DNA from: Psychromonas algarum
Lineage (GTDB): Bacteria; Pseudomonadota; Gammaproteobacteria; Enterobacterales; Psychromonadaceae
Direction of reading: 5' to 3'
DNA: 64,000 nt
Assembly: GCF_004376845.1 (NCBI RefSeq)
Contig: NZ_SNUW01000006.1
Location: forward strand, 62,001 to 126,000
Positions 32,061 through 44,482 of this stretch are shown here, one piece after another (positions within the stretch are counted from its first letter, which is position 1; each line of letters opens with the position of its first letter). The notes under the pieces were generated by a model. That model was not told where the DNA came from. It saw only the letters and a list, made by a program, of their open reading frames with translations, and ran no database searches. A program made the translations under genes and the position numbers.

Positions 32061-33002
32061 TTACAAAGTGCTTTGTTCTGGTGGCTTTAAGAAATACAGT
32101 TCTGCAAGATCATTATGGATGCTAGCCAGTTTAATCTGAATTTGATCCATATAATCATGCAAATAGCCTTTTTTCAATACCCCAACATCATCTGCTTTTA
32201 ATTCATCAATTGCTTTATCAATAGATACCATTATTTCAGTTGAATTAGGCAAAGGCCCCACTAACGCTTTTACTTCCTGCAAACAATACATTATCGACCT
32301 TGGAAAAACCTGACTATGCAACACAAACTTAATTACATCAGGACGTTGAACGCGTACCCCCATCTCTTGGCGATACATTTGATAAGCACTTAATGAACGT
32401 AATAAACTGATCCATTGAATATTTTCAAACGGTTTAGCTTCTTCACTAACGATTAAAGTCTCGGAGCGAATGTCTAATATACGCGATGTCATATCAGCGC
32501 GCTCAATCATTAATCCAAGACGAATAAAGGTATACCCTACATCATGGTTAATGGTTGCATCTAAAGCGCCAAATATTTGGTGTGCTGCACCAATAATTTT
32601 TTTTAAATAAGCAAATCTTCCGCGCTTACTTAACCCCTCACTTTGATTGTCTTTTACATAATAATATAAGGTGTTTATCTCTTCCCAAACATCTCTAGGG
32701 ATCACGTCTCTGATTGTGCGAGCGTTTTCTCTGGCTGAGATAATAGAGTTTAAGATGGAAGAATAATTATCTTTTCCTACTAACAAGTAGCGTAAGGCTT
32801 TGGGCTCAGAAAAATCTGTATGTGTTTCTTGATAAGCAGTACGCGCACCAATAATATCAATTAAAGGCTCCCACCCTGTACTTACTCCTTTAGGTAAGTC
32901 CATCATCAACATATTATTTACATTAATTAAACGAGCTACGTTCTCTGCACGCTCAATGTAACGAGATACCCAATATAAAGTTTCACCAACTCTTGATAAC
33001 AT
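32061..33002 (-). CDS. alpha-E domain protein (DUF403)
   Basis: 313-residue, almost wholly helical protein. The opening MLSRVGETLYWVSRYIERAENVARLI is the signature of the alpha-E domain, whose Glu-Arg pairs recur in helices along the chain (for example LGLMIERADMTSRIL). Alpha-E proteins are encoded beside circularly permuted ATP-grasp ligases and transglutaminase-like proteins and are thought to work with them in making or attaching a peptide. No biochemical activity is established to my knowledge. It starts one base after the ATP-grasp stop, which suggests translational coupling. Confidence 0.9.
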   Translation of the reverse strand: MLSRVGETLYWVSRYIERAENVARLINVNNMLMMDLPKGVSTGWEPLIDIIGARTAYQETHTDFSEPKALRYLLVGKDNYSSILNSIISARENARTIRDVIPRDVWEEINTLYYYVKDNQSEGLSKRGRFAYLKKIIGAAHQIFGALDATINHDVGYTFIRLGLMIERADMTSRILDIRSETLIVSEEAKPFENIQWISLLRSLSAYQMYRQEMGVRVQRPDVIKFVLHSQVFPRSIMYCLQEVKALVGPLPNSTEIMVSIDKAIDELKADDVGVLKKGYLHDYMDQIQIKLASIHNDLAELYFLKPPEQSTL

Positions 33003-33003
33003 A

Positions 33004-34464
33004 TTATTTAGCCTCCTCGTCTACAATCCACGTATCTTTACTGCCACCACCTTGTGATGAATTTACCACTAAAGATCCTTTAACCATGGCAACACGTGTT
33101 AATCCGCCTGTTGTAATTTGAGTGTCTTTACCTGACGATAAAATAAATGGTCTGAGATCAGCATGACGACCATCAGGGGTAATACCATCTGACTCTAATG
33201 TTGGAACCGTTGATAAATCTAATGTTGGTTGAGCAACCCAGTTACGAGGATCTGCTTTTATTTGTGCGATAGTCGCTTGTTGCTCTTTTTTGGTAGATTT
33301 AGGGCCTATTAATAACCCATAACCACCCGATTCATTAGCGGGTTTGACCACTAATTTATCGATATTTTTAATCACGTGATCGCACTCAACAGGATCAAGG
33401 CATTTATAGGTTGGTACGTTTGCAATTTTTGCGTCTTCACCTAAGTAATATTTAATGATCTCAGGCACATAAGCATAAACCACTTTATCATCTGCAACCC
33501 CAGCGCCAGGTGCGTTGACTAATGCAACGTTACCTTTTGACCAAGCACGCATTAGTCCAGGAACACCTAATTGTGAATCAGGTAAAAACACTTCTGGATC
33601 TAAAAACAAATCATCAATTCGACGGTAAATAACATCTACACGCTGCAAACCTGTGATGGTTCTCATGTAAACACAATCATCTTTTTCTACCACTAAATCG
33701 CGGCCTTCCACCAGTTCACAGCCCATCTCTTGAGCTAAGTAACAATGTTCAAAATAAGCTGAATTAAAAACACCAGGCGTTAGCACTACAACTTCAGGTT
33801 TATCTTGAGGTCGAGGAGACATAGCAGCTAACATATCAAATAATTGGGAGGGGTAATCGTCGACGGGTAAAATAGACGCTTGTTCGAATAATTCAGGAAA
33901 AACACGCTTCATAACTGAGCGGTTTTCAAGCATATAAGACACACCAGAGGGAACACGGAGATTATCTTCAAGCACATACATGGTGCCATTACCGTCTCGA
34001 ACTAGATCGGAACCACAAATATGCGCCCATATTTTATTTGGAGGGTTGATACCAACACATTGTTGGCGAAAGTTTACAGACTTTTCTAATAAACCTTTAG
34101 GAAAGACACCGTCTTTGATAATTTTTTGGTCATGATATAAATCATCAATAAATAGGTTTAACGCTTCAACACGCTGTTTTAAACCAACTTCGACACCTTG
34201 CCATTCCTTTTTACCAATAGTGCGAGGAATGATATCAAAAGGCCAAGCCCTATCAATCATATTACCTTCATTGTAAACAGTGAAGCTAATCCCCATCTCT
34301 TTAATCGCTAAATCAGCGACCGATCTTGCTTTTGTTAACTCTTCTGCCGATAAATTAGAAAAAAACTGAGCTAACTGTTTTCCATGTGTCCTGACGTTTC
34401 CTTTGGCGTCAATCAATTCATCAAAAAAACCATTCGTTTGGTACGCTTTCCAATCAATTTCCAT
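33004..34464 (-). CDS. circularly permuted type-2 ATP-grasp protein
   Basis: 486 residues. Family marks include RTIGKKEWQGVEVGLKQRVEALNLFIDDLYHDQ (about 80-112), GSDLVRDGNGTMYVLEDNLRVPSGVSYMLENR (about 150-181) and KPANESGGYG (about 373-382), the ATP-binding loop. Such enzymes are predicted to form amide bonds using ATP, joining an amino acid or amine to a carboxylate, often on a peptide. This is the unfused partner of the alpha-E protein that follows. The same two domains occur fused in the gene at 35389. Confidence 0.9.
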   Translation of the reverse strand: MEIDWKAYQTNGFFDELIDAKGNVRTHGKQLAQFFSNLSAEELTKARSVADLAIKEMGISFTVYNEGNMIDRAWPFDIIPRTIGKKEWQGVEVGLKQRVEALNLFIDDLYHDQKIIKDGVFPKGLLEKSVNFRQQCVGINPPNKIWAHICGSDLVRDGNGTMYVLEDNLRVPSGVSYMLENRSVMKRVFPELFEQASILPVDDYPSQLFDMLAAMSPRPQDKPEVVVLTPGVFNSAYFEHCYLAQEMGCELVEGRDLVVEKDDCVYMRTITGLQRVDVIYRRIDDLFLDPEVFLPDSQLGVPGLMRAWSKGNVALVNAPGAGVADDKVVYAYVPEIIKYYLGEDAKIANVPTYKCLDPVECDHVIKNIDKLVVKPANESGGYGLLIGPKSTKKEQQATIAQIKADPRNWVAQPTLDLSTVPTLESDGITPDGRHADLRPFILSSGKDTQITTGGLTRVAMVKGSLVVNSSQGGGSKDTWIVDEEAK

Positions 34465-34513
34465 ACACTTACCGCCTTCGTATTAACTCATAATTTAATA
34501 TGTTGTCATAAAG

Positions 34514-35392
34514 CTACTCTAATCGAATCATATCTACTGCTACATCTAATAATTGTGATCCACCACCAAACACAACTCCTTTCAGTGGAGTGACATCAGA
34601 AAAATCACGTCCAACTGCCAAAGTAATATGTTGATTAGTCGGTAATACATTGTTCGTTGGGTCAAAATCAACCCAACCATAATTAGGAACAAAAATCGCA
34701 AACCATGCGTGTGTAGCATCCGCTCCTTCTAGCTTTTCTTCACCTTCTGGTGGAAGCGTTTCAATATATCCACTGATATATCTTCCCGCTAAGCCGATGC
34801 TTCTTAAACAAGCTAACGCAAAGTGTGCAAAATCTTGGCAAACGCCCCTTTTTTGTGCAAAAACGACACTTAAAGGTGTGCTAATCGTAGTAAAACCAGG
34901 ATCATAGTGAAACTCATGAAATATTCGTGCCATTAAGTCAGTACAGGCTTCAATTAAATTTAATCCCGGTGTAAATGACGTCAGCGCATACTCTTTAATG
35001 CCTGCTTCTAAAGGAGTAAATTGCGAAGGTAATACAAACTCAGAGACTTTTAATAAGGTGGGAGTATTGGCTACCGTTAATAAATCTCGGACGGTTTCCC
35101 ATGGCATATCAATGATACTTAAATCAAGGCTTTGAGGTGCGAACAGTTCCACTTCACTGACCATAGTCACGGTGAGCTTTTTATGCTGTTTAGCAATTTC
35201 AAAGACCGTTACCTTATTATTAAAATAATCAGTATATTCTTGTAAATAAGTCGTCGGTGGCAAAATCTCAATATGACTGTTATGACATATTTGTAAACGA
35301 TTAGATTTTGGTGTTAGGCGCGCCTGATTCTGACACAAGCTGACAAAATCTGCATACCGATAAGTAGTTGAATGTTTTATTTTATATTTCAC
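34514..35392 (-). CDS. transglutaminase-like cysteine protease-fold protein
   Basis: 292 residues with the bacterial transglutaminase N-terminal beta domain (MKYKIKHSTTYRYADFVSLC) and a papain-like transglutaminase core. The catalytic triad is visible: Cys185 in KRGVCQDFAH, His228 in DATHAWFAIF and Asp244 in WVDFDPTNN. It could cleave or transfer peptide amide bonds. GTG start overlaps the stop of the upstream gene by four bases (GTGA), a strong sign of coupling. Substrate is unknown. Confidence 0.9.
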   Translation of the reverse strand: MKYKIKHSTTYRYADFVSLCQNQARLTPKSNRLQICHNSHIEILPPTTYLQEYTDYFNNKVTVFEIAKQHKKLTVTMVSEVELFAPQSLDLSIIDMPWETVRDLLTVANTPTLLKVSEFVLPSQFTPLEAGIKEYALTSFTPGLNLIEACTDLMARIFHEFHYDPGFTTISTPLSVVFAQKRGVCQDFAHFALACLRSIGLAGRYISGYIETLPPEGEEKLEGADATHAWFAIFVPNYGWVDFDPTNNVLPTNQHITLAVGRDFSDVTPLKGVVFGGGSQLLDVAVDMIRLE

Positions 35393-37899
35393 GATTGAGC
35401 TTGCTCAATATTGGTCCAATTCAATTTATTAGCCGTTTGTGTATGAGAAAAATATTGTAGTAATAATACATCACAAAAAGTATCAAGATTACTACGAATA
35501 TGGTGATTGAATTCAATTAATTGCACACGCTTGCCATCAGTGCTTTTTTGAAGATAATCTTTCTCAGTAACGTAACAAGTTGTTTTAGAGAGTAAAATAG
35601 CCTTTTCATGTGCAGCAATTACACCTGGGCGTCGTTTAGTCGGTAAATGTTGACACAATAAACTAATTTGCTCTAGTTGATATAAGAGTGAACGAGGATA
35701 TTCCGCATCTAACAATAAGAGTTCAAGCCCCGTCCCGATACTTTGGTGCATTCTATAACGGCGTTTATGTGTTACCAAGCTAACTTGAGACGTTAAGATA
35801 GATTCCAATAACCCTATTTCAGCTGATTCTTCTAACTCATCGCTCAATAAAGCAGGACTTAAAGAAATGATTTGCAAACTACGCTCTACACGATGCCCCA
35901 TCTCTAAAAGGAACCAACCATTACTATTCGGCATACAATCCGTGATTGAACCATTAAATGCCATAATAGAGCCAATCACTTTATCTATGCTCGCTTGCAA
36001 AGCACGTGATGGTCTATTCACTGTGCATGCTTTTAATGCATCAATTTGCTCGTTAATATCATCAATAATACGGCGACTATCGTAAGACAATAATTCTTGA
36101 ATTTGCGCAGCCGCATTAGATAAGTATTTCAAACTATTAATAATGCTACCAGCACATTGCTCATCGGCTAATAACTGAAACGCCATCTCTTTTGCTTGTG
36201 CAAGCGTACATTCTTGTAAAACGAATTCTTGCTCAATATACGGATAAACAATTTGTTGTGAACGAATTGCGGTAAATAATCGTGTGATGATAGTTTGTCG
36301 CATTACATCTGAGTAAACAGACAGTTCGGTGTAACGATCAATAAAAACACGTAAAATGCGTACGGTACTTTCACATCGTTCTAAATAACGCCCTAACCAA
36401 AACAAGTGTTCCGCTGTACGGCTAGAAATAACACCTTCTAATAAGGTTACATCCATTCTTTTACGTACTGGAATAGGCGCAATGGGTTCAACAATATCAT
36501 CTACGGCATTGGTGTTAATCCAAGTATCTTTTATCCAACCAGAAACTTTAGAATAATGGCTAATATCATTAGAAAAACAGAATGCGGAAGGCAATACTTC
36601 TACGCCATGTTCTGTCGTTAATGCGTAGCATCGAAAAACTACCTGTTTTGAAATTAATTGGCCACCACTCCAAAATGGAGCGGTGCTTAAAGTGGGTCTG
36701 TCTTGAAAATAATAGTCTTCAGGCTGTTTATCAATTGCTAACTTGATCGCTTTAGCATCATCACTCCCATCCAATTTAAATGTGGGATCTTGATAACTTC
36801 TTAGTTCAAGTAAAGGCCAGTCTAGCGGCGTAACTTCTGTGCTTTCATAATAAGTCGATTGCCCTAATAACAGTGGTTCCTGAAGTAGCTTTTCTGATAA
36901 AAAGGCTAAATTACGCTGCACTGCTAACGATGATAAGACCCCACTACCAAAGGGATTTAATACTTTAACCGAATTTTCCCGTACCGCTTGTAATAAACCA
37001 GGAATACCATGTAATGAATATTCAGTTTGCTCTAATGAATCGATACAACGATCTGGTAACCAACGAAGAATTACGTTTATCTTACCTAAGCCTTGTAACG
37101 ATTTTAAACATACCTCCCCATTCCTAACCGTTAAGTCTGCACTTTGTACTAGCGTATAACCAAAGTAAGTTGAGAGAAAAGCATGCTCATTAAAATTAGG
37201 ATCGTCTATACCTTGGGTGAGAATAACAATTCGGGGATCATCCATGTAACGCGTATATTCATTAATGGTTTCTTGGAATGAGTTTAAAAAATTTTTAATC
37301 TGCTGTACATGGCATTCAGCAAACTCTTCAGCCATCACGCGGCGAGCAATAATACGACTTTTCAATAACAAACCAAGTCCCAGTGGACACTGACAATGAT
37401 CTTCTAACACCTTGAATTCACCTGTGGGTGTTCGATAGATATCAACGGCACTAAAAAATAACTTTAGTTCATTACTTGGTAAGCTAAAACCTTCTCTGAG
37501 GTAATTTTTATCTTGGAATAGTTGTTGTGCTGGGATCGAACCATCAATCAATAATTGCTGGTCACCGTAAAGATCTTCCTGAATTTTATTTAACAATATT
37601 GTTCTTTGTTTTACACCAGCTTCAATTGAACTCCAATCATCTTTAGAGAACATGAAAGGTAATGGATCAAATTGCCACTGTTGATTACGTTCATGCTTGA
37701 TGTTGCCATTTTGTAATAATTGACTGATTTCAATAGCGCGGCTATTTACATCTTCTGCGGTCAAGGAAGATAGGCTTTTAAATAAAATATTCCAATGCTC
37801 TAGGTTAACACCACTATGGTTAACTAACTCATCATGTTGATGTGATTTATCAAGATATAAGGATAACCATTCAGGCATAGTCGTATTGTTAATATACAA
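35389..37899 (-). CDS. fused circularly permuted ATP-grasp / alpha-E protein
   Basis: 836 residues. The N-terminal part (about 50-470) is a circularly permuted ATP-grasp domain (IEAGVKQRTILLNKIQEDLYGDQ, EFKVLEDHCQCPLGLGLLL). The C-terminal part (about 495-820) is an alpha-E domain opening GVISSRTAEHLFWLGRYLERCESTVRILR. The usual KPANESGGYG loop is not visible in the ATP-grasp half: around residue 380 the chain reads KLDGSDDAKAIKLA, so this half may be non-catalytic, while the gene at 33004 keeps the loop. The start is TTG with GGAG ten bases upstream; an in-frame ATG at 37878 has no clear binding site. Confidence 0.88.
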   Translation of the reverse strand: MYINNTTMPEWLSLYLDKSHQHDELVNHSGVNLEHWNILFKSLSSLTAEDVNSRAIEISQLLQNGNIKHERNQQWQFDPLPFMFSKDDWSSIEAGVKQRTILLNKIQEDLYGDQQLLIDGSIPAQQLFQDKNYLREGFSLPSNELKLFFSAVDIYRTPTGEFKVLEDHCQCPLGLGLLLKSRIIARRVMAEEFAECHVQQIKNFLNSFQETINEYTRYMDDPRIVILTQGIDDPNFNEHAFLSTYFGYTLVQSADLTVRNGEVCLKSLQGLGKINVILRWLPDRCIDSLEQTEYSLHGIPGLLQAVRENSVKVLNPFGSGVLSSLAVQRNLAFLSEKLLQEPLLLGQSTYYESTEVTPLDWPLLELRSYQDPTFKLDGSDDAKAIKLAIDKQPEDYYFQDRPTLSTAPFWSGGQLISKQVVFRCYALTTEHGVEVLPSAFCFSNDISHYSKVSGWIKDTWINTNAVDDIVEPIAPIPVRKRMDVTLLEGVISSRTAEHLFWLGRYLERCESTVRILRVFIDRYTELSVYSDVMRQTIITRLFTAIRSQQIVYPYIEQEFVLQECTLAQAKEMAFQLLADEQCAGSIINSLKYLSNAAAQIQELLSYDSRRIIDDINEQIDALKACTVNRPSRALQASIDKVIGSIMAFNGSITDCMPNSNGWFLLEMGHRVERSLQIISLSPALLSDELEESAEIGLLESILTSQVSLVTHKRRYRMHQSIGTGLELLLLDAEYPRSLLYQLEQISLLCQHLPTKRRPGVIAAHEKAILLSKTTCYVTEKDYLQKSTDGKRVQLIEFNHHIRSNLDTFCDVLLLQYFSHTQTANKLNWTNIEQAQS

Positions 37900-37981
37900 G
37901 CTGATCGCACTCCATATTTAAGAAAAATGTTGAGTAAATAATTGTCATTATATAGTACGGATTGGAAAGAATTGATCATTC

Positions 37982-38003
37982 CACTTTAATTAATTTTAAA
38001 GTG
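37982..38003 (-). terminator. intercistronic hairpin within the operon
   Basis: Inverted repeat CACTTTAA/TTAAAGTG with A-T extensions lies between the DUF2126 gene and the fused gene. No T-run follows, so it may be an mRNA-processing or stability element rather than a terminator. Confidence 0.35.
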
Positions 38004-38024
38004 AAATGATACAATTATTAATGC

Positions 38025-41000
38025 TTATTTAAAGGCTGGTTGTCGACGTAAATCCAAGGTATTTGGATAATCTTGATTAGTGCTTTCCTCTTCAGGAGCG
38101 ACAAACTCACTAACTGCACCAGCATTTTTAAAGCTATGTGTCACAGCAGACGGTACCCAACTTGGCTCATCCGAGCTCAATAACGATGGTGTATGGCCAT
38201 ACTCCCAAAAACGTGCAACTCGTCGTCCTTCTGCTTCAAAAGCATTCACCGGTAATGTTTCAGGGTTACGTCCACCAGCATGACTTACATGATAAACAAA
38301 ACCACCTAATGAACGGCCTTCCCACGTATCAATCAAATCAAAAGTCAACGGAGCATGTACGCCAATGGTTGGATGTAATGCTGTTGGAGGTTGCCATGCT
38401 CGATAACGAATACCTGCAACCATTTCATCTTTTGCTTTACCTTTAACTGCTTTCAACGGAACTCGACGACCATTACAAGTCACTATATAACGATCACTCA
38501 TAGTGCCTTGTACTTTTATCTGTACCCTTTCTAATGATGAATCAACATAACGTGCTGTACCAGACCCTGTCGCTTCTTCACCTAATACATGCCAAGGCTC
38601 AATAGCAGTCCTTAACTCTAACGTTACATTATCAAGTTCACGTGTACCACAAACAGGGAATCTAAATTCAAAGAAAGGATTTAACCAACTTAATTGAAAG
38701 CCAAAGCCTGCTTGCTGTAAATCACGGGTCACTTCTGCTAAATCATTTTCAACATATTGTGGTAGTAAGAATTTATCATGTAATTCTGTGCCCCAACGTA
38801 CTAGTGGTTTGTGATAAGGTTTTTTCCAGAACCAAGCAAGTAAAGTACGCAATAATAGCATTTGTACCAAACTCATTTGTTCATGAGGAGGCATTTCAAA
38901 TCCCCTAAATTCCACAATACCTAAACGCCCAGTCGCAGAATCTGGTGAGTATAATTTATCAATACAGAACTCGGCTCTGTGTGTATTACCCGTTAAATCC
39001 ACCAATAAATTACGTAATAACCTATCCACTAACCAAGGTTCAGGTACTTCGCCTTCAGGCATGTGTGAGAAGGCAATTTCCAACTCATACAATATTTCAT
39101 CACGGGCTTCATCTACTCGTGGCGCTTGACTCGTTGGGCCAATAAACAAACCAGAAAATAGGTAAGATAATCCCGGATGATGCTGCCAATAAGTAATGAA
39201 ACTTCTTAAGATATCAGGTCGGCGTAAAAATGGACTTTGATCAGGCGTTTCACCACCTAAGGTTACATGGTTCCCCCCCCCGGTCCCCGTATGACGACCA
39301 TCAGCCATAAACTTATCAGTGCCTAAACGTGACTGTTTAGCTAAACCATATAAGGTTGTGGTTCGTTCAACTAATTGCTCCCACGATTTAGACGGATGAA
39401 TGTTCACTTCAATAACACCCGGATCAGGTGTCACTGCATATTTATCAACACGGCTATCTTTAGGGGGAGTATATCCTTCAATAACGACAGGGATTGATAA
39501 TGCTTTAGCGACCTTTTCAACTTCCGTTAAAATCGCTAAATAATGTTCAAAATGACTTGTTGGTGGCATAAAAATATACAAACGTCCGCCTCTGACTTCA
39601 AGCGCCAGCGCGGTTTTAATCATCTCTTTACCAATAATCCCTTTTTTCGTTTTCTTGGTTTTAGCAAAACTATCAGGAATATCAAAAGGGTCGCGGTCGA
39701 TAATATTATCTGACCATTGCAAACTGTCTAACGGTAAGCGATAACCTAACGGAGATTCTCCGGGTAATAAGAAACAGTGACCACGTTTAAACTCCCAAAT
39801 ACAAGACTGCCAGCAATGTTTACTGTCATTCCACTGTAAAGGCAGCACATAACCAATTGGTTTTTCTATGCCTTTTTCCATTTTAGCCAAGAAACCTTTT
39901 CGGCTCATAGCATCTAATAGTTCAGGTTGTTTGGGACCAACTTCTTTTGGCAAAGACGCTTCTTGCCATAGATGATAGAGAATATCTTCATAAGCTGTAG
40001 TCAAGGCAGTTTTACCTAACCCTAATGCGTCGCTTAATTTTTCTGCAAATTTCTTTGTGTCGGTATGATCTAATTTATAGTCTTTATTGGGATCGGCTAA
40101 TAAGCTGGAATCTTTCCAGAGCGCCACGCCATCTTTACGCCAATAACAACCGTATTGCCAACGAGGTAAAGGTTCACCTGGATACCATTTACCTTGTCCA
40201 TAGTGGGTAAAACCACCTTTAGTAAAGACTTTATTCATTTCTAAAAATAGGTGGTGGGCTAATACTCTTTTTTCTTCGCCATCCGCTTCAGTATTCCATT
40301 GAGGGTGTTCCATGTCATCAATAGAGATGAAAGTTGGCTCCCCGCCCATGGTTAAATGAATACCCTCTTCATCATAAAGGTTATCGACCTTTTGGCCTAA
40401 ACGATTAATGGCAGACCACTGTGCTTCAGAATAAGGTTTAGTTACACGAGGATCTTCATGCACGCGTGTTACTTTGTTATAAAAACTAAATTCAGATTCA
40501 CAATCATCTATGCCGCCCGTTACCGGTGCAGCAGAGCTTGGCTCAGGTGTACAAGCTAATGGGATATGCCCTTCGCCAGCAAATAATCCAGAAGTTGGAT
40601 CCAATCCAATCCAACCAGCACCAGGGATATACACTTCAGTCCAAGCATGTAAATCAGTAAAATCTTCTTCTGGACCACTTGGGCCATCTAATGATTTTTG
40701 ATCGGAAGTTAACTGCACTAAATAGCCAGAAACAAAGCGAGAAGCTAAGCCTAAATGACGGAATAACTGTACTAATAACCAAGCTGAATCACGACATGAT
40801 CCGGTCTTTTTAGAAAGCGTTTCATTAGGTGTTTGTACACCCGGTTCTAAACGGATGCCATAACCAACAAGTTCATAAATAGCTTGGTTAACAGCAACTA
40901 GAAAATCAACACTACGAATAGGCTCCTTAGGTATTAAAGAAGCGATTAACTCTAATAATTTGGGACTGGCTTTACGTTTCTTTAAATAAGGCGCCAATTC

Positions 41001-41336
41001 AGCTTTTGATATTTTGTCATAAACAAAAGGGAACTCTTCCGCATACTCTTCTAAAAAGAAATCAAAGGGATTAATAACCGTCATTTCAGCCACTAAATCA
41101 ACAGTAAAGCTAAACTCAGTTGTTGGCTCATTAAACACGACTCGAGCTTGGTAATTACCAAACGGGTCTTGTTGCCAATTAATGTAATGGTCTTCTGGTG
41201 TTATTTTTAAAGAATAACTTTTAATTTTAGTACGACTATGAGGAGCAGGACGTAAACGAAATATATGCGGCCCCATATTCACAGAACGGTCATATTTATA
41301 TTCGGTATGGTGTGAAATACCAACAGTAATTGTCAT
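38025..41336 (-). CDS. transglutaminase / DUF2126 giant protein, first gene of operon
   Basis: 1103 residues. The N-terminal transglutaminase-like domain (about 1-290) has Cys181 in KTGSCRDSAW, His230 in DLHAWTEV and Asp246 in GLDPTSG. The rest is DUF2126 (about 310-1100), including GIHLTMGGEPTFISIDD, the Gly-rich turn GTGGGNHVTLGG and RRPDILRSFITYWQHHPGLSYLF. DUF2126 is related to amidoligase/glutamine-synthetase-like folds according to published domain analyses; I infer amide-bond chemistry. The length is usual for this two-domain family. GGGGAATTAG precedes the ATG. A nine-G tract lies within the gene (39273-39281 on the plus strand as C). Confidence 0.9.
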   Translation of the reverse strand: MTITVGISHHTEYKYDRSVNMGPHIFRLRPAPHSRTKIKSYSLKITPEDHYINWQQDPFGNYQARVVFNEPTTEFSFTVDLVAEMTVINPFDFFLEEYAEEFPFVYDKISKAELAPYLKKRKASPKLLELIASLIPKEPIRSVDFLVAVNQAIYELVGYGIRLEPGVQTPNETLSKKTGSCRDSAWLLVQLFRHLGLASRFVSGYLVQLTSDQKSLDGPSGPEEDFTDLHAWTEVYIPGAGWIGLDPTSGLFAGEGHIPLACTPEPSSAAPVTGGIDDCESEFSFYNKVTRVHEDPRVTKPYSEAQWSAINRLGQKVDNLYDEEGIHLTMGGEPTFISIDDMEHPQWNTEADGEEKRVLAHHLFLEMNKVFTKGGFTHYGQGKWYPGEPLPRWQYGCYWRKDGVALWKDSSLLADPNKDYKLDHTDTKKFAEKLSDALGLGKTALTTAYEDILYHLWQEASLPKEVGPKQPELLDAMSRKGFLAKMEKGIEKPIGYVLPLQWNDSKHCWQSCIWEFKRGHCFLLPGESPLGYRLPLDSLQWSDNIIDRDPFDIPDSFAKTKKTKKGIIGKEMIKTALALEVRGGRLYIFMPPTSHFEHYLAILTEVEKVAKALSIPVVIEGYTPPKDSRVDKYAVTPDPGVIEVNIHPSKSWEQLVERTTTLYGLAKQSRLGTDKFMADGRHTGTGGGNHVTLGGETPDQSPFLRRPDILRSFITYWQHHPGLSYLFSGLFIGPTSQAPRVDEARDEILYELEIAFSHMPEGEVPEPWLVDRLLRNLLVDLTGNTHRAEFCIDKLYSPDSATGRLGIVEFRGFEMPPHEQMSLVQMLLLRTLLAWFWKKPYHKPLVRWGTELHDKFLLPQYVENDLAEVTRDLQQAGFGFQLSWLNPFFEFRFPVCGTRELDNVTLELRTAIEPWHVLGEEATGSGTARYVDSSLERVQIKVQGTMSDRYIVTCNGRRVPLKAVKGKAKDEMVAGIRYRAWQPPTALHPTIGVHAPLTFDLIDTWEGRSLGGFVYHVSHAGGRNPETLPVNAFEAEGRRVARFWEYGHTPSLLSSDEPSWVPSAVTHSFKNAGAVSEFVAPEEESTNQDYPNTLDLRRQPAFK
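39273..39281 (-). repeat. nine-base homopolymer (G9 in the coding strand)
   Basis: Nine G in a row encode the Gly-Gly-Gly of GTGGGNH in the DUF2126 protein, near residue 687. It is the longest G/C run I noticed inside a gene in this AT-rich window. Gain or loss of one base would truncate the protein. Confidence 0.8.
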
Positions 41337-41863
41337 CGACTAATTCCCCTTTAATGATATACAGCTATATAAATAACATGAGCATACAATTTATATTGTC
41401 TTTATTGCACTGCAATATTTATTCCATTTAAATAAAATAGATATTTTGTCCTGCTAAATTGCTTAAATAGCCTATTTAAAAGCCTTTTCACTAGGATAGG
41501 CAATAATGAAAACTTAAACCTCGTCCTGAATGGTGCAAAGAACGCACTACAATAGCACTAAAATCCGTATGAAAAGCAAACGTTATAGCAATTCTTGCAA
41601 TTTAATCATTGCTTTATTGAATATAAATAACAAACCAAAAAAAATAAAAAATAGTTCACAATAAAACGGCGATTAAGCAGATGAACAATGCTATCATACG
41701 CACATATTTTAACCGCTTACTGTACATAAAACCGGTCATCATGGCATAGTATTTAAAACGTCTTTGTATTTCTTAATAAAGTCTTTTAAATAGTCACAAA
41801 GCGTATTAATTAATCCGCTTCTAAGGCCTTAACAGCCTACTCAATTTAATAGGATATTTCCTT
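41337..41863. other. 527-bp divergent regulatory region
   Basis: AT-rich region between the DUF2126 operon and the SHOCT protein gene. No frame with a ribosome binding site and no RNA gene were recognised. It must hold promoters for both directions. Confidence 0.5.
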
Positions 41864-42640
41864 ATGCAAAAGCTAACAAATACCGGTGAAAATTTAGTTA
41901 ACAATATAGTGTCACGTTATGGCTTAAGTCACGATGCAGTCGTTCACATGTTAGTTGCAGTTAATAATGGCGGTTGTTCAATGGCGCAATTCAATTGCCC
42001 TGAATTAGGTGGTTCAGGCCAATGGATGCAAGGTGGAATGACAATGGTTGGTGATATGTTTAATAGCAATTTAAAAAACACAGTTGATAATCTGTGTAAT
42101 GAACTCGCTAATATCTTAACCAACAATCAAATATTTCCAGCTGTCGAAGCAGGTACGCCTGGCAGTAATCAATGGTGGCCAATGGATTTAGGTAGCCCTT
42201 TTAGTAGCGGAGCACAAAACAATATACGTTATGCAGTTTTTCCTCAGCGATTAGCCGTTGAATTAAATGGGCAAGTATTAGTTTATGATACATTAGATCA
42301 CAATATTGGTGGTGTTAGCCAACAGCAAGGAGGCAATGATTCCCTGACGTTTAGTAGCCAATGGGGAACGATTAATGTAAACAGTTTGCCATTAGTATCA
42401 GGTCAACCTCAAGCACAGACTAATTTTGCAGATACAGTTCAACAGCCCTACGTAACACAAGCAGCAACGACAGCACCACAACAAATGCCAGAGCCGACAA
42501 GTGACATTAATAACACACAATATGAATCAGCGAATCAAATGATAGAGATCATCAAAAAACTAGCAGAGTTGCGTGACTTAGGGGTATTGACTGAAAATGA
42601 ATTTAATGCGAAGAAAACAGAACTATTAAAGCAAAGCTAA
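41864..42640 (+). CDS. SHOCT-domain protein with unassigned N-terminal domain
   Basis: 258 residues. The last 30 (MIEIIKKLAELRDLGVLTENEFNAKKTELL) are a SHOCT domain, a short C-terminal oligomerisation module. The first 190 residues are not recognised. They contain a Gly/Met/Asn-rich stretch (NCPELGGSGQWMQGGMTMVGDMF) and a beta-rich middle (RLAVELNGQVLVYDTLDHNIGG). A Gln/Thr-rich linker joins the two. There is no signal peptide or membrane span. AGGA precedes the ATG. It may be co-regulated with the metallopeptidase gene downstream. Confidence 0.75.
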   Translation: MQKLTNTGENLVNNIVSRYGLSHDAVVHMLVAVNNGGCSMAQFNCPELGGSGQWMQGGMTMVGDMFNSNLKNTVDNLCNELANILTNNQIFPAVEAGTPGSNQWWPMDLGSPFSSGAQNNIRYAVFPQRLAVELNGQVLVYDTLDHNIGGVSQQQGGNDSLTFSSQWGTINVNSLPLVSGQPQAQTNFADTVQQPYVTQAATTAPQQMPEPTSDINNTQYESANQMIEIIKKLAELRDLGVLTENEFNAKKTELLKQS

Positions 42641-42665
42641 TAAAACAACTCTAACCCGATAATAT

Positions 42666-42696
42666 AACCCTTTCTATCATCAGTAGAAAAAGGGTT
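42666..42696 (+). terminator. hairpin after SHOCT gene
   Basis: Stem AACCCTTTCTA/TAGAAAAAGGGTT with a bulge and a 7-base loop lies between the SHOCT and metallopeptidase genes. The following T-run is poor, so read-through is possible. Confidence 0.5.
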
Positions 42697-42729
42697 AATA
42701 ACCTTAAGCGTATATGGTTGGTATTAACA

Positions 42730-43911
42730 ATGAAAACGTTCCAGTGTACTTGTGAAGACAAACCTATTTTATTTTTTGAAAGTAATCGTTGTCTACGTTG
42801 CGATACAACAGTAGGTATTGATGATAATTTCAATCACGTAGAACCTTATCAATTTAATACGACAACAGGTCTATTTTTTAAAGCAAAGCAACCTGATGTA
42901 CATTACAAAAAATGTGATAATAATGAACAGTTCAATGCTTGTAATGGCATGGTGAATATCAGCACATTGGTAGCCGATCCTGATAATAACGAAATACTAT
43001 GTTTTGCTTGTCGTTTTAATGAAACAATACCAGACCTCAGTATTGCAGAACATATTCCTTTATGGAAGAAAATGGAAACGGCAAAACGTCGTGCACTTTA
43101 TACACTCAAATCATTAAAAGTCCCGTTGCAAACTATTACTGAAAATCCAGAAACAGGTTTAAGTTTTGACTTTATTACCGACCGAAATGTTAAAGATCAC
43201 TTTGCGAGTCCAATAGAAGGACAAGAAATGGTGTTTACGGGACATGATTGTGGTCATATCACCATCAACCTAGCTGAAGCAGACGATGTAGCCCGCTCTC
43301 AAACAAAGAGTGCAATGGGTGAACGATACAGAACATTATTGGGTCACTTTCGCCATGAATTAGGGCACTATTATTTTGACCAACTGATTGTGCCATCGCC
43401 AGAAAAATGGGCTTTATGTAAACAATACTTTGGTGATGATGAACTAGATTACCAAGAAGCGCTTGAACATCATTATGAGCATGGTGCTCCTAATAATTGG
43501 CGAGGCACTTTTATAAGCCAATACGCGACCATGCATCCTTATGAAGATTGGGCTGAAACATGGGCGCATTACATGCATATCATCGACACACTAGAAACAG
43601 CACAAAATTTTTCAATGACAGGATCAACAACTAGCGTTGAAGAAACAACTGAAGAAGTTAATGACTTAAACTTACCTCAAGATACACGCTATTTTAGAAG
43701 GCAGACCGACATTACAAGTATTTTGGATACCTGGGTAGATTTCTCCGTAATGCTCAATTCGTTAAATAGAAGTATGGGATTGCCTGATGCTTACCCGTTT
43801 CTATTAACTCAAGCCGTTCGCACCAAGTTGACTTTTATTCATCACGCGATACACGATAAATTACATTTATTGCCAACGATTGAAGTGATAAAAGAAGAGC
43901 AAGAAAAGTAG
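42730..43911 (+). CDS. zinc-ribbon metallopeptidase of the putative zinc-binding peptidase family
   Basis: About 393 residues. The N-terminus is a zinc ribbon (CTCEDKP...NRCLRCDT, with more Cys at about 60-100, including CNGM and CFAC). The catalytic centre is FRHELGHYYFD, an HExxH motif, followed about 60-65 residues later by EDWAETWAHY, which probably supplies the third zinc ligand. This matches a family annotated only as putative zinc-binding metallopeptidase. There is no signal peptide, so it acts in the cytosol. ATG at 42730 is preferred to a TTG four codons upstream; no good binding site decides it. Confidence 0.82.
   Translation: MKTFQCTCEDKPILFFESNRCLRCDTTVGIDDNFNHVEPYQFNTTTGLFFKAKQPDVHYKKCDNNEQFNACNGMVNISTLVADPDNNEILCFACRFNETIPDLSIAEHIPLWKKMETAKRRALYTLKSLKVPLQTITENPETGLSFDFITDRNVKDHFASPIEGQEMVFTGHDCGHITINLAEADDVARSQTKSAMGERYRTLLGHFRHELGHYYFDQLIVPSPEKWALCKQYFGDDELDYQEALEHHYEHGAPNNWRGTFISQYATMHPYEDWAETWAHYMHIIDTLETAQNFSMTGSTTSVEETTEEVNDLNLPQDTRYFRRQTDITSILDTWVDFSVMLNSLNRSMGLPDAYPFLLTQAVRTKLTFIHHAIHDKLHLLPTIEVIKEEQEK

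Positions 43912-44111: not shown

Positions 44112-44482
<371 letters not shown>

What the first reader, a model, noticed from the sequence alone, without database searches (positions are those of the whole stretch)
32061..41336. Five-gene ATP-grasp / alpha-E / transglutaminase / DUF2126 operon with a doubled ligase module
Seen: one minus-strand operon holds two ATP-grasp plus alpha-E sets, one split (33004 and 32061) and one fused (35389), and two transglutaminase-like proteins with intact Cys-His-Asp, one of them carrying DUF2126. Genes are overlapped or one base apart. Known: such clusters have been predicted by comparative genomics to make or attach a peptide or amide-linked modification, but the product is not established. 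The fused protein seems to lack the KPANESGGYG ATP loop that the split one keeps, suggesting an active/inactive pair. No separate precursor-peptide gene was seen.
Basis: partly seen in the sequence, partly recalled or inferred. Interest (0 to 1): 0.7.

Follow-up and report, generated by a model that had tools for sequence, protein, structure and literature searches.

The report
Nitrogen-starvation peptide-ligase operon with pseudoenzyme
Five neighbouring genes in a marine bacterium form a known but uncharacterised enzyme cluster, probably switched on when nitrogen runs short and predicted to join amino acids or peptides by amide bonds; one of its two look-alike ATP-using enzymes has lost its active site in every relative examined, which is interesting but largely anticipated.

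Summary
The five genes are real and correctly placed, though only two of the four junctions are overlapping or one base apart. The order is conserved in 19 of 19 named relatives (Pseudocolwellia, Psychromonas, Colwellia, Pseudoalteromonas, Shewanella).

The active/inactive idea holds far beyond this window. All 57 fused ATP-grasp/alpha-E proteins examined keep only 1-3 of 10 presumed ATP-site residues; 67 of 68 separate ATP-grasp proteins keep all 10. The alpha-E half of the fused protein keeps its ER motifs. The fused protein tracks DUF2126 (41 of 45 genomes) and is nested inside genomes holding the active ATP-grasp (44 of 45). So this is not a doubled ligase: the second ligase is more likely the DUF2126 protein, with the dead ATP-grasp as its partner.

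New context: a conserved sigma-54 promoter with an NtrC-like site lies upstream, matching published NtrC/RpoN control of homologous clusters. There is no Anbu protease in this genome. A divergent gene pair (SHOCT protein, zinc peptidase) adjoins the operon in 16 of 19 relatives.

The system was predicted in 2009. From memory, Pfam text already mentions inactive forms fused to alpha-E. Product and substrate remain unknown. Member of a known kind, modest interest.

The parts
32061..33002 (-). stand-alone alpha-E protein, 313 aa
   Evidence: PF04168 E=2.2e-81; ER motifs E17/R18 and E167/R168 conserved
33004..34464 (-). active-type circularly permuted ATP-grasp protein, 486 aa
   Evidence: PF14403 E=1.2e-161; closest solved structure 3n6x, E=6e-150; all 10 presumed ATP-site residues kept, as in 67 of 68 separate-type proteins
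34514..35392 (-). transglutaminase-like protein, 292 aa, Cys185-His228-Asp244 intact
   Evidence: PF08379 and PF01841; triad conserved in the family alignment
35389..37899 (-). pseudo-ATP-grasp fused to alpha-E, 836 aa
   Evidence: PF14403 and PF04168; E166 and R438 are the only two of 10 presumed ATP-site residues left; ER motifs of the alpha-E half intact
37975..38010 (-). 15-bp stem-loop just after the DUF2126 stop codon; possible processing site or attenuator
   Evidence: an equivalent hairpin folds in most of the 19 related loci, with changed but still paired sequence; terminator-like scan hit
38025..41336 (-). transglutaminase (Cys181-His230-Asp246) fused to DUF2126 putative amidoligase, 1103 aa
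   Evidence: PF09899, PF08379, PF01841; triad and much of DUF2126 near-invariant in 54 proteins
41412..41426 (-). sigma-54 (-24/-12) promoter TGGAATAAATATTGC, about 75 bp upstream of the operon
   Evidence: one mismatch to consensus; conserved in 18 of 20 related upstream regions; genome encodes RpoN
41531..41559 (-). NtrC-like half-site cluster AGTGCTATTGTAGTGCGTTCTTTGCACCA, possible upstream activator site
   Evidence: conserved columns in the upstream alignment; one relative (L017) has the canonical form GCACTATTTTGGTGC; position
41864..42640 (+). divergent gene: conserved protein with a C-terminal SHOCT domain, 258 aa
   Evidence: PF09851 at the cut-off; beside the operon in 16 of 19 relatives
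42718..43911 (+). divergent gene: zinc-ribbon plus Peptidase_Mx metallopeptidase, 397 aa, HELGH motif
   Evidence: PF15887 E=2.7e-95; HExxH in nearly all complete homologues; 31 of 31 gammaproteobacterial genomes with it also hold a CP-ATP-grasp

Best explanation
A nitrogen-limitation-induced amide-ligation (peptide synthesis or protein-tagging) operon. RNA polymerase with sigma-54, activated by NtrC or a similar activator, transcribes the operon (regulation inferred from conserved promoter sequence here, shown experimentally for homologous clusters elsewhere). The separate CP-ATP-grasp enzyme activates a carboxylate with ATP and makes an amide bond, working with the separate alpha-E protein (inferred; phosphate release from ATP has been shown for a Yersinia homologue). 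The DUF2126 protein, a putative amidoligase with its own transglutaminase domain, is the second ligase (inferred). The fused protein has no working ATP site and serves as a non-catalytic partner: a docking, substrate-holding or regulatory subunit that brings an intact alpha-E domain to the DUF2126 ligase (loss of the site strongly supported, role inferred). The transglutaminases transfer or hydrolyse side-chain amides, and the neighbouring zinc peptidase trims or removes the product, taking the place that Anbu has in other clusters (speculative).
For: Site loss: 57 of 57 fused proteins keep 1-3 of 10 presumed ATP-site residues, 67 of 68 separate ones keep all 10. The alpha-E ER motifs on the same polypeptide are kept at about 98%. 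Fused and separate forms make one bipartition with 100% support. dN/dS of about 0.04 over the pseudo-ATP-grasp part indicates it is still used (few unsaturated pairs). Fused protein and DUF2126 co-occur: 41 of 45 against 5 of 105 genomes, p=1e-26. DUF2126 implies the active ATP-grasp: 46 of 46, p=2e-16. Sigma-54 site: 18 of 20 near relatives; upstream of the separate ATP-grasp in 24 of 67 distinct loci, against 2 on the reverse strand and 0.6 in shuffles. Published: B. cenocepacia I35_5080-83 (DUF404/407, DUF403, transglutaminase, large transglutaminase protein) depends on NtrC and sigma-54 (PMC5491218). P. [quoted passage not shown] The Y. bercovieri ATP-grasp releases phosphate from ATP (PMC6376114).
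Against: No substrate or product is known for any member. ATP-site residues were assigned by family conservation and general ATP-grasp motifs, not from a ligand-bound structure; one Arg (R438) is kept in all fused proteins, so some ligand may still bind. Both AlphaFold models failed (pLDDT about 41), so neither the fold of the fused protein nor a glutamine-synthetase-like fold of DUF2126 was confirmed. Three complete genomes have the fused protein without DUF2126 (G024, G114, G126), and five genomes have DUF2126 without the fused protein. The window's NtrC-like site is degenerate in one half.
Confidence: 0.55

Rival explanations
1. The pseudo-ATP-grasp is the partner of the active ATP-grasp (an unequal active/inactive pair in one complex), and DUF2126 is a separate downstream enzyme.
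For: The fused form is never found without the active form except in one 74%-complete genome (44 of 45 and 17 of 17). Both are co-transcribed here and in relatives (inferred from gene order). In G126 the fused protein sits directly after the separate ATP-grasp and alpha-E with no DUF2126 in the genome.
Against: The active form occurs without the fused one in 38 of 82 and 46 of 63 genomes, so it does not need it. The fused protein's tightest companion in gene order is DUF2126.
Confidence: 0.25
2. The fused protein is still an enzyme: its ATP-grasp-like domain has been re-used for a different reaction or ligand, keeping the Arg and scaffold residues.
For: 45 of the positions invariant in the separate form are kept in the fused form, R438 in all 57. 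Purifying selection is strong.
Against: The presumed metal ligands, both lysines and the phosphate loop are gone, and the loop region varies freely in length and sequence among lineages, unlike a remodelled active site.
Confidence: 0.12
3. The cluster is mainly catabolic: it helps use or recycle an amide or amine nitrogen source under nitrogen limitation (gamma-glutamylation-like activation followed by hydrolysis), rather than making a tag or peptide product.
For: Sigma-54/NtrC control. These domains cluster with urea-metabolism domains in marine metagenomes (PMC3597751). A zinc peptidase is linked to the cluster.
Against: No transporter or catabolic gene was seen beside it here; nitrogen regulation alone does not tell synthesis from breakdown.
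Confidence: 0.3
4. The operon makes a ribosomal peptide product whose precursor gene was missed, or uses the adjacent SHOCT protein as its substrate.
For: The SHOCT gene is divergent and conserved beside the operon in 16 of 19 relatives, and the 5 of 229 class genomes that have it all hold a CP-ATP-grasp.
Against: No conserved short ORF in any gap. Outside this lineage the SHOCT gene is not next to the cluster, and most genomes with the ligases lack it.
Confidence: 0.08

Closest known systems
CP-ATP-grasp / alpha-E / transglutaminase / circularly permuted COOH-NH2 ligase peptide-modification system (Iyer et al. 2009, PMC3268129; paper not held, cited through PMC5666114 and PMC3597751, details from memory)
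   Same: all four domain types, including (from memory of the Pfam PF04174 text) active and inactive ATP-grasp forms with the inactive form fused to alpha-E
   Different: here both sets lie in one five-gene operon; the Ntn-hydrolase (Anbu) is missing; a zinc peptidase and a SHOCT protein are divergent neighbours
Anbu operon (Y. bercovieri, P. aeruginosa, P. putida PP_2685-2688)
   Same: ATP-grasp, alpha-E and transglutaminase; nitrogen-limitation control (PMC7801951)
   Different: no Anbu in this genome, and none detected in the 19 related genomes; DUF2126 and the pseudo-ATP-grasp are added
B. cenocepacia H111 I35_5080-5083 (BCAM1233-1236)
   Same: DUF404/407, DUF403, transglutaminase and a large transglutaminase protein under NtrC and sigma-54 (PMC5491218)
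   Different: no fused pseudo-ATP-grasp/alpha-E is listed in that cluster
PDB 3n6x, 'putative glutathionylspermidine synthase'
   Same: only solved relative of both ATP-grasp proteins; much closer to the separate one (503 bits against 120)
   Different: name is a homology label; no alpha-E part, and the fused protein lacks its ATP loop

Membership tests
Predicted CP-ATP-grasp/alpha-E/transglutaminase peptide-modification system (Iyer 2009) | circularly permuted ATP-grasp with intact ATP site | tested here: met
   33004-34464: PF14403/PF04174 and all 10 presumed site residues
Predicted CP-ATP-grasp/alpha-E/transglutaminase peptide-modification system (Iyer 2009) | alpha-E protein with ER motif in the same cluster | tested here: met
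   32061-33002 and the C-terminal half of 35389-37899
Predicted CP-ATP-grasp/alpha-E/transglutaminase peptide-modification system (Iyer 2009) | transglutaminase, stand-alone and fused to the DUF2126 ligase, with catalytic triad | tested here: met
Predicted CP-ATP-grasp/alpha-E/transglutaminase peptide-modification system (Iyer 2009) | amide-bond-forming activity on a peptide or protein | not testable with these tools
   needs biochemistry; not shown for any member in the papers read
Anbu operon | Anbu Ntn-hydrolase in the cluster | tested here: not met
   only one proteasome-family gene in the genome, HslV next to HslU; no Anbu ORF in related loci L006-L024 and none detected in the 19 related genomes (which had no positive control in that run)
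Catalytically inactive ATP-grasp fused to alpha-E | loss of ATP/Mg-binding residues with alpha-E domain kept | tested here: met
   57 of 57 fused proteins
NtrC/sigma-54 nitrogen regulon | -24/-12 promoter with upstream activator site | tested here: met
   41412-41426, conserved in 18 of 20 relatives; NtrC-like site degenerate in the window
NtrC/sigma-54 nitrogen regulon | expression depends on rpoN and ntrC | not testable with these tools
   shown for a homologous cluster in B. cenocepacia (PMC5491218); nitrogen induction in P. putida, assigned there to NtrB/NtrC (PMC7801951)
RiPP / graspetide cluster | short precursor peptide gene beside the ATP-grasp gene | tested here: not met
   no conserved short ORF in 20 loci
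Anti-phage defence system | match to a known defence model | tested here: not met
   no PADLOC hit for seven proteins

The most novel reading that the evidence does not exclude
The pseudo-ATP-grasp/alpha-E protein is a universal, obligatory non-catalytic subunit of the DUF2126 ligase: the ligase activity has moved from an ATP-grasp to a different fold while the dead ATP-grasp stayed as the subunit that presents the alpha-E domain and substrate. With a zinc peptidase in the place of the Anbu protease, this would be a nitrogen-stress protein- or peptide-modification pathway with its own remover.
Probability: 0.25. Interest if true: 0.7.

Novelty: new member of a known kind. Interest (0 to 1): 0.38.

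Why it matters
The ATP-grasp core of the system was present in 83 of 150 sampled Pseudomonadota genomes, yet it has no known product, although a role in tagging proteins has been discussed since 2009. The results narrow the question. They say which of the two ATP-grasp proteins can be catalytic and which one probably cannot. They point to DUF2126 as the ligase to test. They give an inducing condition (nitrogen limitation) under which to look for the product, and they add a zinc peptidase that nearly always occurs with the ligase as a candidate remover or processor.

Tried and rejected
AlphaFold models of the fused protein and of the DUF2126 part had mean pLDDT of about 41 with the shallow permitted alignments and were not used for fold searches. 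Short precursor ORFs: none conserved; apparent hits were the two strands of a DNA hairpin. Anti-phage defence: no PADLOC model matched. Anbu replaced by the zinc peptidase as a general rule: rejected, since many gammaproteobacterial clusters hold both side by side. A lineage-specific loss of the ATP site in the window's clade: rejected, the loss is family-wide in Pseudomonadota. Recent duplication of the ligase module: rejected, the two ATP-grasp types are deeply separate. One apparent inactive separate ATP-grasp (L022) was a frameshifted fused gene. The 2009 paper could not be read.
Full report
WHAT IS THERE. Five minus-strand genes lie at 41336-32061: transglutaminase-DUF2126 (1103 aa), fused CP-ATP-grasp/alpha-E (836 aa), transglutaminase (292 aa), CP-ATP-grasp (486 aa) and alpha-E (313 aa). 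The genome has no other CP-ATP-grasp or alpha-E. In 19 named loci from Pseudocolwellia, Psychromonas, Colwellia, Pseudoalteromonas and Shewanella the five genes keep the same order. In 16 of these the same divergent pair lies upstream: a SHOCT-domain protein and a zinc-ribbon/Peptidase_Mx protein, at 41864-43911 in the window.

THE DEAD ATP-GRASP. Fifty-seven fused and 68 separate ATP-grasp proteins were aligned (window, named relatives, unnamed Pseudomonadota genomes). Ten positions were picked from general ATP-grasp motifs: E166 and N168 (an ExN metal motif), K327, K374, G380, G381 and G383 of the SGGYG loop, D436, R438, N468. Sixty-seven of 68 separate proteins keep all ten. The fused ones keep one (43 proteins), two (12) or three (2); only R438 is universal. 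Nine of the ten positions are lost in the fused family, against 27 of 132 other positions that are invariant in the separate family (p=1.5e-5). The window's fused protein keeps only E166 and R438. As a control on the same polypeptide, the alpha-E half keeps both ER motifs at about 98%. The fused and separate forms are the two sides of one fully supported branch (one mislabelled row, L022, is a frameshifted fused gene). The pseudo-domain is still constrained: median dN/dS about 0.04, from only seven unsaturated pairs. It nevertheless evolves faster at the protein level (71-82% identity) than the separate ATP-grasp (91-96%) in the same genomes. The residue roles are inferred from motif knowledge; no ligand-bound structure was available (nearest solved chain 3n6x).

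WHO GOES WITH WHOM. In 150 Pseudomonadota genomes the fused protein and DUF2126 co-occur (41 both, 4 fused only, 5 DUF2126 only, 100 neither; p=1.4e-26). DUF2126 never occurs without a separate active-type ATP-grasp (46 of 46), and the fused protein only once (44 of 45; the exception is a 74%-complete genome), while the separate form often occurs alone (38 of 82 genomes). In a class-level sample the fused protein again always has the separate one (17 of 17). The usual gene order of the add-on is transglutaminase-DUF2126, fused, transglutaminase, often next to the separate set. So this operon joins a core module (ATP-grasp, alpha-E) with an add-on module (DUF2126, pseudo-ATP-grasp/alpha-E, transglutaminase). 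It is not a duplication of a ligase.

THE NEIGHBOURS. Full-length Peptidase_Mx is found in 31 of 229 gammaproteobacterial genomes, all 31 with a CP-ATP-grasp (63 of 229 have one; p=4e-21), and in 21 of 22 in the phylum sample. In many of these it sits directly beside the separate ATP-grasp, alpha-E and Anbu. Its HExxH motif is conserved. This genome has no Anbu: its only proteasome-family gene is HslV beside HslU, and no Anbu was detected in the 19 related genomes (without a positive control in that run, although the same query finds Anbu ORFs in many fetched loci). The SHOCT protein is rare (5 of 229 genomes, all with a CP-ATP-grasp) and is adjacent to the operon only in this lineage.

REGULATION. 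A -24/-12 sequence, TGGAATAAATATTGC, lies 75 bp upstream of the first gene. In the window alone the motif count is not above chance, but it stands at nearly the same distance in 18 of 20 related upstream regions that otherwise diverge, against 2% expected per shuffled region at a laxer threshold. It is preceded by an NtrC-like half-site cluster, which in L017 is a canonical GCAC-N7-GTGC site. Across distant genomes, 24 of 67 distinct upstream regions of the separate ATP-grasp carry a sigma-54 site with at most one mismatch, against 2 on the reverse strand and 0.6 in shuffles. The genome encodes RpoN. This agrees with experiments on homologous clusters: B. cenocepacia I35_5080-83 depends on NtrC and sigma-54 (PMC5491218), and P. 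[quoted passage not shown]

HOW IT PROBABLY WORKS. Under nitrogen limitation the operon is switched on. The separate ATP-grasp, whose Yersinia homologue releases phosphate from ATP (PMC6376114), forms an amide bond on an unknown substrate together with alpha-E. DUF2126 carries out a second ligation, helped by the pseudo-ATP-grasp/alpha-E protein as a non-catalytic partner. Transglutaminases move or remove amides, and the zinc peptidase trims or reverses the product. Promoter conservation, site loss, co-occurrence and domain content are shown here; the chemistry, the partner role and the peptidase role are inferred.

WHAT IS KNOWN. The system was predicted by comparative genomics in 2009 (Iyer et al., not readable here; summarised in PMC5666114 and PMC3597751). 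From memory, the Pfam text for PF04174 already says that the family has active and inactive versions and that the inactive ones are often fused to alpha-E. The central observation is therefore a confirmation with numbers, not a discovery. The near-obligate zinc peptidase link and the conserved sigma-54 promoter on a DUF2126-bearing operon in marine Gammaproteobacteria were not found in the papers searched, but the search covered only open-licence papers. One functional lead: a review lists an anti-nematode activity of a metagenomic clone carrying ATP-grasp, alpha-E, transglutaminase and protease genes (PMC7764037); the primary paper was not found.

LIMITS. Only Pseudomonadota were sampled. Both structure predictions failed. 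The genome searched is a draft in 38 contigs.

Noticed in passing
window 44114-44482 (-): RNase P RNA gene (Rfam RF00010). The small ORF 44116-44325 (+) on its opposite strand is very probably a false ORF.
   Followed up: yes
window 37975-38010 (-): Stem-loop of about 15 bp after the DUF2126 stop codon; similar hairpins with different but paired sequence stand at the same place in most relatives. Possible mRNA processing site or partial terminator separating DUF2126 from the other four genes.
   Followed up: partly
L099, L101-L107, L124: In many Gammaproteobacteria the zinc peptidase, Anbu, ATP-grasp and alpha-E form a tight cluster without a detected transglutaminase, whereas clusters with a transglutaminase lack the peptidase; the sample was partly chosen by peptidase adjacency.
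   Followed up: partly
L091/L137 (G126): Fused pseudo-ATP-grasp/alpha-E directly after the separate ATP-grasp and alpha-E, with a transglutaminase but no DUF2126 anywhere in the genome; an exception worth testing.
   Followed up: partly
L022 (Shewanella sp. KJ10-1): Both the DUF2126 and fused genes are frameshifted in this assembly; could be sequencing errors or real decay.
   Followed up: no
L133-L135 (G076, G036, G064): DUF2126 in genomes with no fused protein; in G076 and G036 it lies beside an active-type separate ATP-grasp, and in all three beside Anbu; shows that DUF2126 does not always need the pseudoenzyme.
   Followed up: partly
PMC7764037, table entry 'clone jj117': A review lists an anti-nematode metagenomic clone whose genes are ATP-grasp, alpha-E, transglutaminase and protease; a possible functional lead for this system.
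   Followed up: no
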